DNA from: Mycobacteriales bacterium | GTDB taxonomy: Bacteria > Actinomycetota > Actinomycetes > BP-191 | Assembly: GCA_035714365.1 (NCBI GenBank) | Contig: DASTMB010000040.1 | Coordinates: forward strand, 62,001 to 126,000 | Reading direction: 5' to 3' | DNA: 64,000 bases | Shown here: positions 49,301 to 62,439 of the stretch, piece after piece | How positions within the stretch are numbered: the stretch's first letter is position 1 | How the letters are laid out: each line of letters starts with the position of its first letter | The notes under the pieces: generated by a model | The model's database searches: none | What the model saw: only the letters and a program-made list of their open reading frames with translations | Told to the model about the DNA's origin: nothing | Program-made: the position numbers and the translations under genes

Positions 49301-49390
49301 GGAGGCTTCGCCTAGTCCGGTCTATGGCGCCGCACTGCTAATGCGGTTTGGGGTAACCCCCCATCCCGGGTTCAAATCCCGGAGCCTCCG
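49301..49390 (+). tRNA. tRNA-Ser(GCU)
   Basis: A 90-nt class II tRNA. The acceptor stem GGAGGCT pairs with AGCCTCC (49383-49389), with discriminator G. The anticodon stem-loop CCGCACTGCTAATGCGG gives anticodon GCT. There is a long variable arm (TTTGGGGTAACCCCCC), and the T-arm is CCGGGTTCAAATCCCGG. The 3' half is the apparent attachment site of the island that follows: a degenerate copy occurs at about 61505-61575. Confidence 0.95.
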
Positions 49391-49995
49391 CTCTGACCTG
49401 CGGTTTCGCGTCGGCTACGCCGCGCTCGCCGCAGGTTCTCGGCTCCGGAACCGCGTGCGGTCACACCGCGGTCACACAGCCTCCTTCCCGGTCTGTCCGC
49501 CCTCGTCCGGTGCCGTCCCGGCCTGTTCGTTCCGGCTCCGGTGGGCGCCGAGTCGAACACCGCCGCGATCTGCTCCGCCGCCTTGCGGTTGACCGCGCTG
49601 TCGACGTAGACGTAGCGGTCGGCGGTGAACCAGGTGGACGAGTGCCCGGCGCGGGCGCTGACGACCTTGAGCAGCACTCCGGCCAGCAGAGCCAGGGTGA
49701 TCGACACGTGCCGGGTGTCGGGGAACCGGATCACCGGGACGCCCGCCTGGCGGCAGAGCGTCTGGAAGTGCCGGCTCACGTAGTCCGGGTTGAGCGGCGT
49801 GCCGTCAGCGTTGACGTACACCAGCCCGGTCTCCACCCACGCCTCGCCCGCCGCCGCGCATTCCGCCTCCTGCTCGGCGCGGTGCTCCGCGAGGACGGCC
49901 GACATCACGTCGTCGAGCGCGATCTCGCGGCTGCCCGCCTTCGTCTTCGGCGGACCGACGACGGCCCAGCAGACGTTAAGTTGCGGACTCGCCAC
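49372..49995 (-). pseudogene. 5'-truncated tyrosine-family integrase
   Basis: A 207-codon frame corresponding to the C-terminal half of a phage-type integrase. VGPPKTKAGSREIALDD begins mid-domain; the SAM-like DNA-binding and first catalytic Arg regions are absent. The RxxR-box reads RFPDTRHVSITLALLAGV, where the usual HDLRH His is Pro. GHSS and the nucleophile context DRYVYV are kept. The frame runs on past the normal end (CDRGVTARG) and stops inside tRNA-Ser. With half the protein and a catalytic His missing, it should be inactive. Confidence 0.8.
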
Positions 49996-53824: not shown

Positions 53825-55366
53825 TCAGCCCGCGACCTCAGAGTTCGCAGCCTCGCCGAGGTTAGCGACGGTCACTCGTGTGCGCCGCCGAGACGCGAGC
53901 CGCTGACGTTCCTCCGCAGGTAGTTCAGCGGCCGGATCGGGCTCGGACAGGACGAGCTCGGCGTTGCTCGCGAACGCACCGAGGTCATCAGCGCTGACCG
54001 TGTCTTGCAGCGTGTCCCACGCGTCCACGACGTCGACGAACTCCCACAGATGATTTCGCGCCGCGATGGGCGCGTCGTCGCCGGCGCGCAACGGGGCCAA
54101 GTCGCGGACCACGTCCCGCCACGGCCTACCGGCGAGGGGCGGCGACCACCTCCTTGTCGCCGTCGCTGTCGTCGCGCCAAGCGCCGGCCAGCAGCAGCGG
54201 CGCCAGCGTCGCCGCGGCTGGCCCGGAGGCCCACGCGGGCGCACCCAGGCTGCCGCGGCCGATCCGGCGCCGCAGTGACGTGAGGCTGCGCCGGGCGCCG
54301 CGAGCCAGTTCGTCCGCCTCGGCGAACGGCACGCCTTGGGCCTCCCAGGCCCGTCGGGCATCGAGCCGGTCTAGCGGGGGCAGTTCGGTGTCGCCGGCGC
54401 GAGCCCGACGTGCCAGGACGACGTGATGGCCGGCGCGTAGCGCGGCGGGGACGTTTGCGTCGGGGAACGCCGGGACCAGGATCATCGGCTGGTCGTAGAT
54501 GACGCAGCGCCGCCAGCCCGCCTCGTCGTGCACCACCAGGGTGCGTTCGGCCAGGGCCTCCCGGCTGGCGTCGACCGGCACGGCGGTCGCGGTGACCAGC
54601 TCCTCAGCCGACGGTGTCGCATCATCTGCCGGCGGCGCGGCGAGCTCGGGTGGACGTGGATCGAGGGTGGGCGCAAGCAGGGTCGCCGCGAGGAACGCGA
54701 TCCCTTCCTCGCGGCTGGGCGCCGGAATGTCGTACTCGCGCGCAGGATCGACCAGGGCGGCCGCCAGAGAATAGGCTTGCGGCAGACGGCCAGCTAGGAG
54801 CAGATCGACGGCAGTGCAGGCTCGGTCTCGTCGCGCCAGTCCTCGATCCACCGAGCGAGCGGCGTGACCCCGTAGGGCTGCCGCCCGAGCACCTCGGAGA
54901 ACCGCGCGCGGACGCCGGGGAGCGTCTCCAGCCAGATCGCGAGTGCATCGGCGTCCAGCGCGACAACCCCGAGCCAGCCGTCGCCGCCGTCGGCCCTATC
55001 CTTCGCCCACGCGGTCGCGTCCACCCACAGACGGGACGTCACGAAGACGAACGTCGTGCGTTCCCGTTCCTCGCGCGGAAGTTGCTCCGTCCGCTTCTTG
55101 TAGTCCTCAGCGGCCTTGCCGGCCGGGTCCGCGCCGGTACCCGCCTCCCACACCGACCGGCCCGCAGGCACGAATGGCGGCGCTCCCCCGATGACCTCCA
55201 CGACACCGTCGAAGCCCGGTGCACCGACACCCTCCGCGGACGGGAAGCGAATGCTAGACGGTACGACGGTGGCCATGATGGCGGCCCGGAGCGAGGGCAG
55301 ATGACCCTGGGCATGCCGGTACCCCGACCAGGTGTCGAGGTCCTTCGCGGTGATGAGTTCATCCAT
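53825..55366 (-). pseudogene. Decayed large island gene in three frames
   Basis: Three overlapping minus-strand frames join into one protein. Frame A (55366 to about 54800) opens MDELITAKDLDTWSGYRHAQ and contains PGFDGVVEVIGGAPPFVPAG, then TTFVFVTSRLWVDATAWA, the N terminus of a large actinobacterial protein family with a nuclease- or STAND-like plan. Frame B (about 54810 to 54126) continues with VDLLLAGRLPQAYSLAAALV and IAFLAATLLAPTLDP. Frame C (about 54130 to 53825) continues RPWRDVVRDLAPLRAGDDAP to a stop. Two indels, near 54800 and 54130, are needed. Intact relatives are, from memory, well over 1000 residues, so the 3' part is probably also lost. Confidence 0.65.
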
Positions 55367-55597: not shown

Positions 55598-57178
55598 TCA
55601 CCGCGACACACCCCGAGCGCCAGCGTCATCGCCGCCGGCCGAACGCCGAGCTCCCACCCGTCGCAGCCGACGATCCACAACGGTGCCGAGCCGCGTGCGA
55701 AGCCCGTAGAGGAGGTCACCGACCGCCCGGGCAAGCCGCAGGGCCCACGCCCGTTCGGCCGCCTGACGAGTGGCACGCCGCAATTCCGCGGCGGCGTGGC
55801 GTCCCGTGACGCTCAGCGCGTGGTCGCCGTCGGCCGTCATCGCCTCGACCGGGCACGTGGGCCGGGTCGCGACGTCAATGTGCTCCAAGGTGTGCGTGCT
55901 CAACAGGTACTGCAACGGCCCGGGTTCGCCAAGCCCGCCAGGTGCGACGGTCAGGCTGACGTACTGCGCCAGCAGTGTCGCCGCCGCGCTAATGGACAAC
56001 GCCGCGACGTTCTCACCGCGGTCACCGCCTGCTCCGAGGCCAGCGATGTACGTCGGGTCCTCGAGGTCGCCGGCGCGGTCGGCCGTGACCGCAGCCAGGT
56101 CGAGTTGGCCGTTGCACGCGAGGCAGGGTCGCCCGGGACGCACGACGTGTGAGCGCCAAGTCGCCCCGCGCATGCCGTCTCCGTCGGGGAACGCGTCCAC
56201 GCCGATGCCACCATCGATGACTGGGATGAGGTGGGCATAAGCCACTGCGTTAAGGACTGCGCGAGCCCACGGCCGGTCGACGCAGCTGAAGATCAAGTCG
56301 TAGTCGAGTGCCTGCGCGAGCCCGGCAGGCTCGCAGACGCTCAGCTCAGAGGTCTCGAGCTGCAGGCCCGAGGCGGTCGCGTTGAGGACGACGAGGCGGC
56401 CGACGACCGCGACCTTCGATCGGCGCAGCCAGGCGTCGAGCGCTGTTGCGCCGATCATCCGGTCGAGGTTGCGCTCCTCGACGGTGTCGAAGTCCATCAA
56501 GCCGATGCGCGTGACACCGGTCGCCGCGAGCCGTACGGCGATGTCGAGCCCTACTGAGCCAGCGCCGACGACGAGCGTGGCCCGTCGGGTGAGGTCGCGG
56601 TGCATCCGCTCGCCCCACGAGGCGACGGCACGCACCTGGCTGCGCCGCGAGGGGGGCGGCGGGACGAGGGCGTCGTTCCAGGTCACGGTCAACCTGTCGC
56701 CTAGCACGCGGACGTTCTCCACGTCCGTTTCCTGCACGTCTCGGCCGGTGCCGCGATCCCAGTGACGGGCAGCCCAGGAATGGTCGCCAGCGAGGGTCAT
56801 GCCGACTAGAGGGAGCCCGGTGATCTCCCGGGCCAGGTTCGCGAACGCCGTTTCGGCGTCCCGGTCAGGCGAGCTCATCGCCTGCCAACCGCGACCGCCC
56901 GGGTGGCTGTGGGCGAGAATGAGCCCGCAGCCATCCTCCTGCGCGATCCCCGCTGCGCGCAGGATGTAGTTGCCGGTGATCGACGCATTGCCGTGCACCG
57001 CGCGCTCACCCGGCTCCGGCAGGACGAGGTGGCGCACCAGCGCGGTGCGCCGGGTCGCCCCAGTAGACGGGCGGTACGTCGCGAGGCAGATGTCCTCCTG
57101 CCCGTCGTTGCGGAGCAGATGCCGCGCGAGCGCGGCGTGGGTCTCGGCGGTCATAGCTACCGACGTTCGCCACGTCAT
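55598..57178 (-). CDS. JAB deubiquitinase-like plus E1/ThiF-like fusion protein
   Basis: A 526-residue fusion. Residues 1-150 are a JAB/MPN metalloprotease domain with the JAMM motif LAHSHPGGRGWQAMSSPDRD near 83-103 (HxH, then Ser and Asp). Residues about 185-470 are a ThiF/E1 domain: nucleotide loop LVVGAGSVGLDIAVRLAATG, LMDFDTVEERNLDRMIGA, and a Cys pair in RPCLACNGQ as candidate thiolation or zinc residues. JAB would trim or remove a Ub-like protein and E1 would adenylate it. ATG 57178 gives a 4-bp ATGA overlap with the E2-like gene. It is third in a coupled Ub-E2-JAB/E1 operon. Confidence 0.85.
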   Translation of the reverse strand: MTWRTSVAMTAETHAALARHLLRNDGQEDICLATYRPSTGATRRTALVRHLVLPEPGERAVHGNASITGNYILRAAGIAQEDGCGLILAHSHPGGRGWQAMSSPDRDAETAFANLAREITGLPLVGMTLAGDHSWAARHWDRGTGRDVQETDVENVRVLGDRLTVTWNDALVPPPPSRRSQVRAVASWGERMHRDLTRRATLVVGAGSVGLDIAVRLAATGVTRIGLMDFDTVEERNLDRMIGATALDAWLRRSKVAVVGRLVVLNATASGLQLETSELSVCEPAGLAQALDYDLIFSCVDRPWARAVLNAVAYAHLIPVIDGGIGVDAFPDGDGMRGATWRSHVVRPGRPCLACNGQLDLAAVTADRAGDLEDPTYIAGLGAGGDRGENVAALSISAAATLLAQYVSLTVAPGGLGEPGPLQYLLSTHTLEHIDVATRPTCPVEAMTADGDHALSVTGRHAAAELRRATRQAAERAWALRLARAVGDLLYGLRTRLGTVVDRRLRRVGARRSAGGDDAGARGVSR

Positions 57179-57525
57179 CGGGCGGTTCCGAGCACGCCGC
57201 GGACGTGGGCGACCCACGCCCGCTCGGGGTAGGCGTCCCCGCCCCAGCCGCGAACCTGCCTCGAATGGCGGACCCAGCCGGTCCGGCCAGACGCCTGGCT
57301 GTTGGTGGCGGGCAGGGTCACGGCCGCCGGCAAGTGGATCCAATGCGGCGGAACCATCGGCCAGCCGGCGAGCTCGGCGACTTCGACCGCAGTCTCCACG
57401 AGCTCGCCGGCGTGGCGACCCTCCACCGGCTCGACGCGGTAGAGGACGAGCCCGTCGCGAACCTCGGGCTCGGTGCCCTGCCGAAGCAGGCCGTCGACAA
57501 AGGCCGCCACGGGCTCGCCACTCAT
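57175..57525 (-). CDS. Prokaryotic E2 family E-like protein
   Basis: A 116-residue protein matching the prokaryotic family-E E2-like fold. The central GWPMVPPHWIHLPAAVTLP strand region is followed by TNSQASGRTGWVRHSRQVRG and WVAHVRGVLGTA. There is no cysteine anywhere in the protein, so thioester transfer by a classical E2 mechanism is impossible; conserved His residues occupy the likely active-site area. It overlaps both neighbours by 4 bp, implying strict co-production with the Ub-like protein and the JAB-E1. Confidence 0.75.
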   Translation of the reverse strand: MSGEPVAAFVDGLLRQGTEPEVRDGLVLYRVEPVEGRHAGELVETAVEVAELAGWPMVPPHWIHLPAAVTLPATNSQASGRTGWVRHSRQVRGWGGDAYPERAWVAHVRGVLGTAR

Positions 57526-57773
57526 GCCACGTCGGCGTTCTGCCGGATGGTGACGAAGCGTGCGCCGGGGTGGATCTGCACGAGCTCGTCGTCGGCGTAA
57601 CGGGCCGGCTCGGGCCGCTGGCCGCGCAGCTCGCCAAGGTCGTACAGGGCCGGGTCGACCCCGGCGAGGCGCAGCAGGTCGGCGGCGGGCTGCCGCCGGT
57701 CGCGCGTCTCGTAGCCCCGGCCGTCGATCGTGAAGGCGACGGCGGGCCGCAGCTCCGTCGGCTTGTCGTTCAT
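57522..57773 (-). CDS. Ubiquitin-like (multiubiquitin-family) protein
   Basis: An 83-residue single-domain protein from ATG 57773, preceded by GAGAGGAGACC. The layout is beta-grasp-like: VAFTIDGRGYETRDRRQ, then a helix PAADLLRLAGVDPALYDLGE, and DDELVQIHPGARFVTIRQNA, the pattern of the multiubiquitin (PF14452-type) domain. It ends in ADVA and lacks a C-terminal Gly-Gly, so it either is not conjugated in the usual way or needs no processing at that end. It is first gene of the operon and divergent from the sigma-like gene. Confidence 0.7.
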   Translation of the reverse strand: MNDKPTELRPAVAFTIDGRGYETRDRRQPAADLLRLAGVDPALYDLGELRGQRPEPARYADDELVQIHPGARFVTIRQNADVA

Positions 57774-57843
57774 GGTGGTCTCCTCTCGCACCGAGCGGCG
57801 GTTTCCTCCCGGTTGCCTAGTTGTCTGGCTGGCAGGGCCTCGT

Positions 57844-59430: not shown

Positions 59431-61286
59431 TCCGCAGACTGCAATTACGCGGCTGGCGCTCGTTCGAGGAGCAGTCCCTTGAGGTCGGGCCCGGCGTCAC
59501 GTTCGTGCTGGCCGAGAACGGTGTCGGGAAGACGTCGCTGATCGAGGCCGCCGCATGGGGCGTGTACGGCGACCTCTCCGGGGTTGATGCAGTGGCAGCT
59601 CGCCGCATCGGCACGGACGACACAAGCGTTGAGGTCGATGTGGAGTTGCCCGACCGCCGGGTGCTTACGATCCGACGCGCGATCGGTGTGGGTCGCGAAC
59701 CCAGCGTCGAGGTGACGCTTGGCGGCGACGCCGTCGATCCGCAGAAGGTCGACGCCGTGCTGGCCGAGGCATTCGGAGCATCGGCCGACTTCCTCGCCCG
59801 CACCACGACGGTGCCGAGCAGCGCAGTGACGGACGAGCGGGTAGGCGCCTTCGCGCTGCACGAACACCTCTGTCGCGTGCTCGGCGTCGATGACCTGAAC
59901 AGGGTCGCGGACCAACTGGAGCAGATCCACGACGAGAACGAGGCGGAGGCGAAGGGATTCCGCTCGGCGTCACGGCGGGCTACTGCCGATCTCGCTGCCC
60001 TGACCGGTCAGCTCGCCGCCGCGGAAGAAGAGCTCGCGGCGCTCGAAGAGCAGCGGGCCGGGTTGCGTAGCGATCTTGAGCACGCCGAAGAGCACCTGCG
60101 GCAAGCCCGGCGACACGCCGAGACAACCCAGCGCGTCGCCGCGGCGCGTGCCGCGTTCGAGGTGGCTCGGGCCGCCGCGGAGGCCGTTGTGCCTGCGTCG
60201 ACGCTGGACGACGTGCATTCGATCGATGAGCTTGTGCGGGTGCTTGAGGACGCCGAGCGGTCCGCGCTCACCGCAACCGACGAGCTGCGTCAGGCGCTCG
60301 CGGGCATCGCTGGCCGCATCGAGTCGATCACGGGTGCGGCGGCGGAGCTCGACACCGCAGCCGGAGACTGCCCGGTCTGCCGACGTCCGATGAGCGACGA
60401 GGACGTCCTGCACGCTCGGCGCAGTCACGAAGCGGACCTGGCTGCGCTGCAGCAAGATCGCGCCACCCGCCAGGCCCGCCTTGGGCAGACGAGTCAGCAA
60501 CTCGACGCGGTACGCGCCGTGCTCCGGCAAGCGCTAGCGGTCCCGTCACCCCCCGCGCAGTTGCCAAGCGGCGGCGATTTGGACGTCGACACCGCGCGCG
60601 CCGGGGTCGACGAGGTTCGTGTACGTCACGACGACCTCTCCGAGGAGGTGGCCGCCGCGCGGGCCATGCGGACGACCCTGGCGGAGCGGATCGCCGCCGA
60701 ACGCGCTGCCGCGGGCGAACAGCAAGCGTCCTTGCACGTGCACCGCAAGGCTGCCGTGTCACGCATGGGCGCTCTGATCGCCCGGGAGACCGCAAACCGG
60801 CTACTCGAGGAGCGCATCGACCCGTTGGCAGCCGAGGTCCGCTCGCGTTGGAAGCGCGTCTTCGGCGACCGCGGCGCGCTGCAGCTCGGTGCCAACGGCC
60901 GCCTCACGCTCCGGCGTGGTGTTGACGACATCCCGTTCGAGTACCTGTCCAGCGGGGAGAAGGTCGTCGCGCTGCTGGCCGTCCGATTGCTCGTACTCGG
61001 ATCCTCGACGCGCGCGTCCTTCCTGTGGCTGGATGAGCCACTGGAACACCTCGACCCGCGCAACCGCCGGCTCGCCGCGTCGCTCATGTCTGCAGCGGGT
61101 ACGCAGGTGCGCCAGGTCCTCGTGACGACGTACGAGGAGGACCTAGCGCGCCAACTCGCGCGCCGGAAACAGGCCTCGATTCTGCGCGTGCAGTCCGCGG
61201 ATGAGACCTGGTTGCCCTCTACGTTTACGGCGCCTGCCCCTGACCCCGAACGGGCCCGCTGGGTCCGAGGACGTCGCGTGGAGTAA
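59427..61286 (+). CDS. Rad50/SbcC-like AAA ATPase with zinc-hook-like motif
   Basis: A 619-residue SMC-like protein from GTG 59427. The N-terminal Walker A is LAENGVGKTSLIEAAAWG near residue 29. Two coiled-coil arms (about 165-270 and 330-470) flank CPVCRRPM near 315, a CxxC like the Rad50 hook. The C-terminal lobe has the ABC signature LSSGEKVVALLAVRLLVLG near 507, Walker B FLWLDEPLEHLD near 531 and a switch TTYEEDLA. It is shorter than true SbcC, like overcoming-lysogenisation/defence-type SMC proteins. No SbcD nuclease gene is beside it; the neighbours are the sigma-like and unknown genes. Confidence 0.85.
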   Translation: MIRRLQLRGWRSFEEQSLEVGPGVTFVLAENGVGKTSLIEAAAWGVYGDLSGVDAVAARRIGTDDTSVEVDVELPDRRVLTIRRAIGVGREPSVEVTLGGDAVDPQKVDAVLAEAFGASADFLARTTTVPSSAVTDERVGAFALHEHLCRVLGVDDLNRVADQLEQIHDENEAEAKGFRSASRRATADLAALTGQLAAAEEELAALEEQRAGLRSDLEHAEEHLRQARRHAETTQRVAAARAAFEVARAAAEAVVPASTLDDVHSIDELVRVLEDAERSALTATDELRQALAGIAGRIESITGAAAELDTAAGDCPVCRRPMSDEDVLHARRSHEADLAALQQDRATRQARLGQTSQQLDAVRAVLRQALAVPSPPAQLPSGGDLDVDTARAGVDEVRVRHDDLSEEVAAARAMRTTLAERIAAERAAAGEQQASLHVHRKAAVSRMGALIARETANRLLEERIDPLAAEVRSRWKRVFGDRGALQLGANGRLTLRRGVDDIPFEYLSSGEKVVALLAVRLLVLGSSTRASFLWLDEPLEHLDPRNRRLAASLMSAAGTQVRQVLVTTYEEDLARQLARRKQASILRVQSADETWLPSTFTAPAPDPERARWVRGRRVE

Positions 61287-61329
61287 CGGTAGCGCCCGCC
61301 CCTCCGAGAAGCGCCTTCCACCAGGTTGA

Positions 61330-61480
61330 ACGGGTGACGGCTGGAGGCCTGGACGGGGTCACACGGTGGTCACACGTCGCCCTGACCGCGCTGCTGACAG
61401 GACGGCTCCGGACGACGGACGACTCCGTGTAGATGTGCGCGCCAAGGGGGGTGTCAGCAACTGCCGAAGGACCACAACGA
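61330..61480 (-). pseudogene. Possible second integrase C-terminal remnant
   Basis: The minus-strand frame reads AHIYTESSVVRSRPVSSAVR, then ATCDHRVTPSRPPAV. The TCDHRVTPS segment parallels CDRGVTARG at the end of the integrase by tRNA-Ser(GCU), and a Tyr occurs before it. The nearby GGTCACACGGTGGTCACACG matches the GGTCACA repeats found after both tRNA-Ser genes. The fragment is short and the alignment weak. Confidence 0.35.
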
Positions 61481-61504
61481 ATGAGTGATGCCGGAATGCA
61501 GTTG

Positions 61505-61575
61505 GCGTAACCCCCATACCGGGCTAATCCCGAGCCGGAACCACCGCTCTGACCGGCGGCTTCGCGTCGGCTCTT
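61505..61575 (+). other. Degenerate attachment site resembling the tRNA-Ser(GCU) 3' end
   Basis: Within about 70 bp the sequence follows the tRNA-Ser(GCU) 3' half and its flank: AATGCAGTTGGCGTAAC, CCCCCATACCGGGCTAATCC, then ACCGCTCTGACCGGCGGCTT and CGCGTCGGCT. Several substitutions and small indels in the T-arm mean it cannot fold as a tRNA. I take it as the decayed right attachment site of the island. Confidence 0.65.
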
Positions 61576-61607
61576 TGGCTTCCGAACCGCGCGGTGTGGT
61601 GCGGTGC

Positions 61608-61782
61608 GCGCCGTGGGCCGCGCATCCTGCGGGGCCGCCCCTCCAAGGTCAAGGGCGCGTGCTTCGCACGCCTCGCTGCGCGACCGCCTGCGGCGGCCCT
61701 TGACCTCGGAGCCTCTGCGACCCCCCGGCCAGGAGGAGCGGGCAGGGCAAGCCCTGCCCGCGAGGCGCGCGGCCCACGGCGC
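61608..61782. repeat. Large structured inverted-repeat element
   Basis: Outer 16-bp perfect arms, GCGCCGTGGGCCGCGC (61608-61623) and its complement (61767-61782), enclose inner arms GGTCAAGGGC (61647-61656) and GCCCTTGACC (61696-61705). They also enclose two compact hairpins: GCGTGC-TTC-GCACGC, and GCGGGCAGGGC-AA-GCCCTGCCCGC (61738-61761). No ORF explains the symmetry. It could be a MITE-like repeat, a strong bidirectional terminator or a structured RNA. Confidence 0.7.
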
Positions 61783-61863
61783 TCGTCTCGGCGACGTTCG
61801 CCGTCGTCGCGTCCATGCCGATGTGGGCTCAGGCGCGGCCACCGACGCTACGATCGACCGCGC

Positions 61864-62439
61864 GTGGTTACCGATTTCTGGAGGCCAGTCGAGTTCAATG
61901 TTCGCGTGTCCTCTTTGCCTGACCGCGGATCGCGTGCCCGCGCGGAGCGGGTCGATGTCTTCCACGACGGGTCGTCCGAGGACGACGGTTGGGTGTTCGA
62001 CACATGGCGGATGCGAGCGTTCGAGGTCACCGGTGGCGGCCAGTTGGAAGGTTGGTTTTCGGACCCTGACGCGCCGGAACCATTGATCGGACGGATCCGC
62101 ATCAAGCGCTGCCCCAGCGGCGTCGACGCGGACCTCGATGACTTGGCCGCGCTCACCCCCCACGCGCAGGGCAACGTTGGCCTGACCGAGATACTCAACC
62201 TGGAACTTGAGCCAGCGTTCCTCGGCCAGAGACTCGGGGACCTGCTGGTACGTGTCGCGCTCGCCGACGTCCCCTCCGACGACATCATCGCTTGTCAGCC
62301 AAGAGCAACTGAGTTCTCCAACGTCCAGCTACGGGAGTCGAAATCGAAGGTCGACGCGTTCTATCGACGGCTTGGCTTCGTCCCCGACGGCCGGCTGCCC
62401 GGCTACCTGACCGCCAGACGCGTTGACCTGCTCCTGTGA
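61864..62439 (+). CDS. GNAT-like acetyltransferase
   Basis: A 191-residue protein from GTG 61864; TACGAT at 61849-61854 fits a -10 element nine bases upstream, and no Shine-Dalgarno is present. Only the C-terminal part is clearly GNAT-like: KVDAFYRRLGFVPDGRLPGY mirrors the last strand-turn of the fold, and LEPAFLGQRLGDLLVRVAL occupies the acetyl-CoA helix, but the usual R/QxxGxG/A loop reads GQRLGD. The N-terminal 100 residues are strand-rich and not recognised. It lies just outside the island's right repeat. Confidence 0.6.
   Translation: MVTDFWRPVEFNVRVSSLPDRGSRARAERVDVFHDGSSEDDGWVFDTWRMRAFEVTGGGQLEGWFSDPDAPEPLIGRIRIKRCPSGVDADLDDLAALTPHAQGNVGLTEILNLELEPAFLGQRLGDLLVRVALADVPSDDIIACQPRATEFSNVQLRESKSKVDAFYRRLGFVPDGRLPGYLTARRVDLLL

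What the first reader, a model, noticed from the sequence alone, without database searches (positions are those of the whole stretch)
61608..61782. Nested inverted-repeat element just outside the island
Two nested arm pairs plus two tight hairpins in 175 bp, with no ORF, indicate selection for structure. It sits exactly at the island's right boundary and upstream of a GNAT-like gene. It may be a mobile repeat family, a structured RNA or an integration hotspot.
Basis: seen in the sequence. Interest (0 to 1): 0.5.

Follow-up and report, generated by a model that had tools for sequence, protein, structure and literature searches.

The report
Mobile folded repeat in actinobacteria
A 175-letter stretch of non-coding DNA that can fold into a branched hairpin turns out to be one copy of a repeat family scattered between genes in actinobacteria, whose shape is preserved while its letters change; it resembles known mobile intergenic repeats but matches no entry of the RNA-family library searched.

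Summary
Window 61608-61782 folds far better than shuffles (z -5.1) and is the most stable of 184 sampled windows. The element is not unique: four full copies and a fragment in the genome, 3 of 3 genomes held for its order, 20 of 296 sampled from its class. Its arms covary: 23 pairs changed on both sides in 20 copies, 15.9 in shuffles.

Ten copies are 82% alike within the element; their flanks are no more alike than random DNA. Copies sit at different places around one homologous island module. So the unit moves or is copied by itself. Gaps holding a copy are often convergent (20 of 35; controls 21 of 184). An IS110-family end abuts two copies at the same base. No Rfam family, target-site duplication or transposase was found.

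Best reading: a new family of mobile, structure-conserved intergenic repeats resembling ERIC or REP elements, which also serves as an IS110 landing site. RNA function is the main rival. "Island boundary" is partly right: att repeats suggest the island runs to 64845.

The parts
61608..61783 (+). whole element (family copy; orientation as in the aligned copies)
61608..61623 (+). left outer arm, pairs with 61767-61782; sequence differs between divergent copies but tends to stay complementary
61767..61782 (+). right outer arm
61631..61638 (+). second stem, 5' side (pairs within 61717-61724)
61717..61724 (+). second stem, 3' side
61648..61704 (+). cloverleaf core: GTCAAGGGC ... GCCCTTGAC stem closing three mini-hairpins
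61657..61671 (+). mini-hairpin 1, GCGTGC[TTC]GCACGC
61673..61683 (+). mini-hairpin 2, TCGC[TGC]GCGA
61684..61696 (+). mini-hairpin 3, CCGCC[TGC]GGCGG
61712..61719 (+). conserved stretch CCTCTGCG, its first five bases unpaired in the consensus; the IS110-family end seen in two relatives meets the element at the equivalent of 61712/61713
61738..61761 (+). side hairpin GCGGGCAGGGC/GCCCTGCCCGC
61495..61572 (+). diverged copy (79%) of the tRNA-Ser 3'-end att repeat; neighbour, not part of the element
49332..49412 (+). left att repeat in the 3' end of tRNA-Ser(GCT); perfect partner at 64765-64845, outside the window

Best explanation
The element is one copy of a non-coding, non-autonomous mobile repeat of about 175 bp. 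It has a long outer stem, a cloverleaf core and a side hairpin. It spreads as a unit between islands, plasmids and chromosomes of Actinomycetota, and it persists mainly in gaps between converging genes, where an insertion does little harm and a hairpin at the 3' end may end or protect transcripts. Pairing is kept by selection on the folded single strand (RNA or ssDNA) or by the copying mechanism itself. A separate IS110-family element uses the conserved CCTCTGCG stretch as a landing site, as IS110 elements use REP sequences elsewhere. Shown: copies with unrelated flanks, pairing conservation, location bias, an IS110-family end at one base in two copies. Inferred: that a transposase acts in trans, that pairing matters during movement, and any effect on neighbouring transcripts.
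For: Copies: 4 full plus a 41-bp right-end fragment in the own genome (the same 4 by model R1); 3 of 3 genomes held for the order; 20 of 296 of the class at E<=1e-3, its own three included, many of the rest weak or of other subfamilies; a full-length relative on a Streptosporangium plasmid (75.6% over 91%). Unit movement: in 42 non-orthologous pairs drawn from 10 of 17 copies with fetched flanks, element identity averages 0.82 while flanks average 0.57 and 0.53, against 0.58 for random 37-mers. Around a homologous XRE/small-protein/WhiB module the element lies on the XRE side in one orientation (L050, L052, L055), on the XRE side in the other (L059), or on the WhiB side (L056). Two copies in G097 are 98% identical over 171 bp with different outer flanks; the second spans two contigs that overlap by 127 bp, a join I infer. 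Structure: 50 pairs over 20 copies, 88.8% of cells paired against 78.7 shuffled and 40-46 slid, 23 pairs with double changes against 15.9, 94 double-change cells against 34.3. The own-arm energies of 13 divergent copies sum lower than in any of 100,000 permutations. Location: convergent gaps 20 of 35 against 21 of 184 control gaps, Fisher p 1.6e-8. IS110: both right ends of that element found in G002 abut copies of the repeat at the same base.
Against: No target-site duplication beyond chance in 16 copies (own mean 3.8, cross-copy 3.9). No autonomous relative or transposase was identified. In one search only 7 of 20 copies rank their own right arm first (6 of the 13 divergent ones, which I chose); the signal is in the sum. 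Three copies are inherited in place (L052, L053, L055). Genes were called by a simple codon-usage script of mine, and some gaps come from related loci, so the location bias rests on approximate and not wholly independent data. The clean empty site is from a related subfamily in another family, not from a window-type copy. Two of five pattern-scan records (L044, L048) did not match model R1 at E 0.01.
Confidence: 0.68

Rival explanations
1. A functional structured RNA: a 3'-UTR element or bidirectional terminator that travels with gene cassettes because each cassette benefits from a hairpin at its 3' end.
For: Strong covariation with conserved unpaired motifs; strong placement between convergent genes; in the four co-directional gaps of the window-like set the element has the strand of the genes.
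Against: No terminator-like site with a T run in 61200-62100 (0 found, 0.5 expected in shuffles, so weak evidence); no Rfam family; in the other subfamilies orientation in co-directional gaps is mixed, 3 same and 5 opposite; only 17 of 875 paired cells are G-U, few for an RNA, but the DNA is very G+C rich and I have no yardstick; distribution is patchy.
Confidence: 0.22
2. A cis-acting DNA site of integrative elements and plasmids, such as a transfer or single-strand replication origin.
For: 8 of 17 close-family stretches hold a tyrosine integrase by tblastn, three of them within 75 bp of the element; core hits on 21 plasmids, of which two lie within 1.2 kb of a relaxase gene among the 8 plasmid stretches opened (the two are); 47 of 57 triloops are TNC, i.e. 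GNA on the other strand, a very stable ssDNA hairpin (the stability is recalled).
Against: Copies also lie beside ordinary-looking chromosomal genes in G142 and G145; several copies per genome; position and orientation relative to one island module vary; the integrase queries were taken from six of the same stretches and there was no background control.
Confidence: 0.08
3. Chance palindromes in very G+C-rich DNA.
For: G+C of 0.80 makes hairpins common.
Against: z -5.1, homologous copies, covariation.
Confidence: 0.02

Closest known systems
ERIC / RU-1 and RU-2 intergenic repeats of enterobacteria (PMC2759123 abstract; PMC2267715 passages)
   Same: about 100-170 bp, intergenic, MITE-like, dispersed; a passage of PMC2267715 says Yersinia ERIC regulate neighbouring genes by folding into RNA hairpins
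   Different: no comparison with ERIC sequences was made; other phylum; branched cloverleaf core with side hairpin; outer arms differ in sequence between divergent copies yet tend to stay complementary
REP/BIME sequences as IS targets (PMC1525189 abstract; PMC11208160 passages on IS621)
   Same: extragenic palindromes entered by IS elements, including the IS110 family, at a preferred site
   Different: REPs are short simple hairpins (recalled); here about 175 nt with several stems; the bridge RNA of the local IS110 was not examined
MITEs such as Correia/NEMIS (recalled)
   Same: terminal inverted repeats, non-coding, dispersed
   Different: no target-site duplication found; no parent transposon found; arms not of one sequence

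Membership tests
MITE (non-autonomous DNA transposon) | terminal inverted repeats, non-coding, dispersed copies | tested here: met
MITE (non-autonomous DNA transposon) | target-site duplication | tested here: not met
   16 copies, own mean 3.8 nt, cross-copy mean 3.9 nt
MITE (non-autonomous DNA transposon) | shares ends with an autonomous transposon | not tested
   no genome-wide search for transposase-bearing relatives was made
REP/BIME-type intergenic repeat | palindromic, extragenic, several copies, biased to 3' ends of genes | tested here: met
   copy number is low in the own genome (4 full)
REP/BIME-type intergenic repeat | associated RAYT (Y1) transposase | not tested
REP/BIME-type intergenic repeat | target of IS110-family insertion | tested here: met
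   2 of 2 right ends found in G002; left junctions not seen
ERIC | sequence match to the ERIC consensus | not tested
   no comparison made
Described RNA family (Rfam 15) | match at or above gathering score | tested here: not met
   (window and six other loci)
Intrinsic terminator | hairpin followed by a T run | tested here: not met
   0 found in 61200-62100
tRNA-type attachment site | copy of tRNA 3' end within the element | tested here: not met
   the att copies lie outside it

The most novel reading that the evidence does not exclude
A phylum-wide superfamily of mobile elements built on one cloverleaf core with GNA triloops. It is moved as folded single-stranded DNA by a protein acting in trans, and its long outer arms are remade at each insertion, which would explain arms that differ between copies yet remain complementary.
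Probability: 0.12. Interest if true: 0.78.

Novelty: new variant of a known kind. Interest (0 to 1): 0.5.

Why it matters
It gives high-G+C actinobacteria a counterpart of ERIC/REP elements, shared between families and found on islands, plasmids and chromosomes, so effects on 3' ends of transcripts and on IS110 targeting become testable. Arms that change sequence but keep pairing raise an open question about how such repeats copy themselves.

Tried and rejected
Rfam with gathering and permissive thresholds gave no family (the two weak matches, P2 at 18.6 bits and mir-3151 at 28.5, lie far below their cut-offs of 80 and 83). Text searches for core strings gave 0 papers for four longer strings and 52 papers for a 10-mer, of which the 20 listed look unrelated by title. 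Text searches for descriptions of such repeats listed nothing that by title or abstract start describes this family. PMC2267715 (passages) has no 'Streptomyces' but counts stem-loop clusters in Mycobacterium and Corynebacterium, with which I made no comparison. PMC3765725 (passages) has no 'repeat' or 'palindrom' in its main text.

The phage collection had no match to the 139-nt variant. A motif of the window type was absent from viral contigs. A looser core pattern matched 44 viral stretches, not followed up. The pattern scan of named genomes gave 6 stretches; of the five given to model R1, L045, L046 and L049 matched and L044 and L048 (Nevskia soli MAG) did not at E 0.01; L047 was not given. 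Identical direct copies in G131 (L068) lie inside a 311-bp duplication and say nothing about unit movement. A search for the left junction of the IS110 insertion found none. I considered an attC-like cassette site because copies bracket cargo in L051 and G097, and dropped it because I saw no shared recombination point.

Rows left out: alignment A3 uses 19 of the 32 matches plus L078; dropped were 2 duplicates, 8 of other subfamilies, 2 truncated or interrupted, 1 partial antisense. One search uses 10 of 17 close copies. One search uses 38 loci, of which 35 had genes on both sides; L057, L058 and L061 were not given.

Full report
OBSERVATION. The nested arms are real: 61608-61633/61757-61782, 61641-61656/61696-61711 and 61738-61748/61751-61761. 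The fold is far better than shuffles as RNA (z -5.1) and as DNA (z -4.4), and it is the most stable of 184 sampled windows. Mechanical ORFs cross it; the one scanned has no Pfam match.

SETTING. The window ends inside an island at tRNA-Ser(GCT). An 81-bp perfect repeat of the tRNA 3' end lies at 49332-49412 and again at 64765-64845, in the contig beyond the window. A third copy, 79% alike, lies at about 61495-61572. The element starts some 36 bp after that copy. An integrase fragment lies at 49372-49995 (Pfam E 6e-5, below the curated cut-off). Cargo includes a ThiF protein, a Multi_ubiq protein (E 8e-5, just below cut-off), a sigma-70-like protein and an SMC/Rad50-hook ATPase whose gene ends 322 bp before the element.

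COPIES. blastn finds 4 full copies and a 41-bp right-end fragment in the own genome. Model R1, built from six copies, finds the same four, matches in 3 of 3 genomes held for the order, and in 20 of 296 genomes of the class at E<=1e-3, the own three included (stricter filters; many of the others are weak or of other subfamilies). Strong matches outside the genus are in f13/g63 (G097, G159, G169) and G008. A pattern scan of named genomes gave 6 stretches: four of Frankiaceae MAGs, one Mycobacteriales MAG, one Nevskia soli MAG; of the five given to R1 three matched. Model R2 finds matches in 7 of 396 genomes of the phylum, the own one included. A full-length relative lies on a Streptosporangium plasmid (sequence), and another with 71% identity over 91% on a 'Candidatus Mycobacterium methanotrophicum' plasmid.

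UNIT MOVEMENT. For ten of 17 close copies there are 45 pairs; leaving out 3 orthologous pairs, 42 remain. Element identity averages 0.82 (minimum 0.75), left flanks 0.57 and right flanks 0.53, against 0.58 for random 37-mers. Three copies (L052, L053, L055) are inherited in place: right flanks alike, left flanks unrelated from within about 6 bp of the element's left end. Around a homologous module (XRE regulator, small protein, WhiB-like protein; Pfam run on the L050 copy only) the element occupies three placements. No target-site duplication was found. In a related subfamily (G145; other outer stems, same core and GAGCCTCT motif) the gap after a gene that I label otsA from memory is 636 bp by the aligned ends, and 13 bp in the congener G663. 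By the coordinates, the 15 congeners divide into 4 with gaps of at most 137 bp (G655, G663, G666, G667), 2 with 431-439 bp (G661, G662), 5 with more than 1.6 kb (G656, G657, G658, G660, G665) and 4 whose right side is elsewhere or not listed (G654, G659, G664, G668). So the empty-site reading rests on four.

STRUCTURE. On a MAFFT alignment of 20 copies (A3) RNAalifold predicts 34 pairs, 15 with double changes. Adding the 16 outer pairs of the window copy gives 50 pairs: 88.8% of cells paired (shuffled 78.7), 23 pairs with double changes (15.9), 94 double-change cells (34.3), covariation 0.272 (0.104), further pair types 46 (38.1; 2 of 500 shuffles as high); slid controls 40-46% paired. The structure was derived in part from these sequences, which favours it over slid versions, and related sequences can exceed shuffles without structure. 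The outer helix is the weakest (75.8%). Tested without alignment, the own-arm duplex energies of 13 divergent copies sum to -460 against a permutation mean of -332, 0 of 100,000 as low; but I chose these 13, and only 6 of them (7 of all 20) rank their own right arm first. Of 57 triloops detected in the core 47 are TNC, with the middle base free. G-U pairs are rare, 17 of 875.

LOCATION. With a simple codon-usage gene caller, 35 gaps holding an element are 20 convergent, 12 co-directional and 3 divergent; 184 control gaps of at least 100 bp in the same stretches are 21, 110 and 53 (p 1.6e-8). For the window-like set alone it is 13 of 18 convergent against 9 of 89. Some loci are related, so the gaps are not all independent. 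Tyrosine integrases (tblastn with six taken from these same stretches) lie in 11 of 41 stretches, 8 of 17 in the close set, the window's being 11.6 kb away; I have no background rate.

IS110. Contig C2 of G002 begins with the 3' end of an IS110-family transposase gene (PF02371) that runs into the right half of the element; contig C55 begins with the last 65 bp of the same end and meets the element at the same base. In six genomes searched with that IS end, these are the only close matches; the other six are short and weak. The assembly breaks there and left junctions were not seen. IS elements entering REP sequences are described in PMC1525189 (abstract), IS110 elements doing so in PMC11208160 (passages).

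WIDER FAMILY. The cloverleaf core occurs with other outer stems in G142, which I take for a Streptomyces (8 model hits, within a longer repeat), in inverted pairs about 0.7-3 kb apart in several genomes of that genus (contents), in 139-144-nt elements of f17, and on 21 plasmids at 80-95% identity over part of the query. The plasmid matches cover the core only and include alphaproteobacterial Acidiphilium and Lichenicola, so common descent there is not shown.

VERDICT. A mobile or at least self-dispersing, structure-conserved intergenic repeat; most like ERIC and REP elements in behaviour, not shown to belong to either. The mover and any effect on transcripts are unknown.

Noticed in passing
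window 49332-49412, 61495-61572; 64765-64845 (L070): Three att-like copies of a tRNA-Ser 3' end suggest two islands in tandem, the outer one about 3.2 kb long and holding the element.
   Followed up: partly
window 55598-57791: ThiF protein, a small protein and a Multi_ubiq protein in a row: a possible ubiquitin-like conjugation operon in the island cargo; L051 has a ThiF/JAB pair too.
   Followed up: partly
L050 8185-9341, L052 14092-15229, L055 6276-7411, L056 8295-9476, L059 3476-4158: Recurrent module of XRE regulator, a small protein with a LVLRV motif and no Pfam match, and a WhiB-like protein (not called in L059) near integrases or transfer genes.
   Followed up: partly
L157 960-1860, L158, L168 (G672): About 850-bp stretches without a called gene, alike in three places of a Streptomyces-like genome, with an inverted core at each end and a shared centre.
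   Followed up: partly
L160 (G680): The region between two inverted cores holds tandem sub-repeats of roughly 67 bp.
   Followed up: no
L056 6480-7196: A CAP12/Pycsar-type TIR effector domain protein lies 0.8 kb beyond the element.
   Followed up: no
L170-L213: 44 viral stretches match a loose core pattern.
   Followed up: no
window 54311-54406: ARAGORN tRNA-Gly call inside a likely coding region, not matched by Rfam; probably spurious.
   Followed up: no
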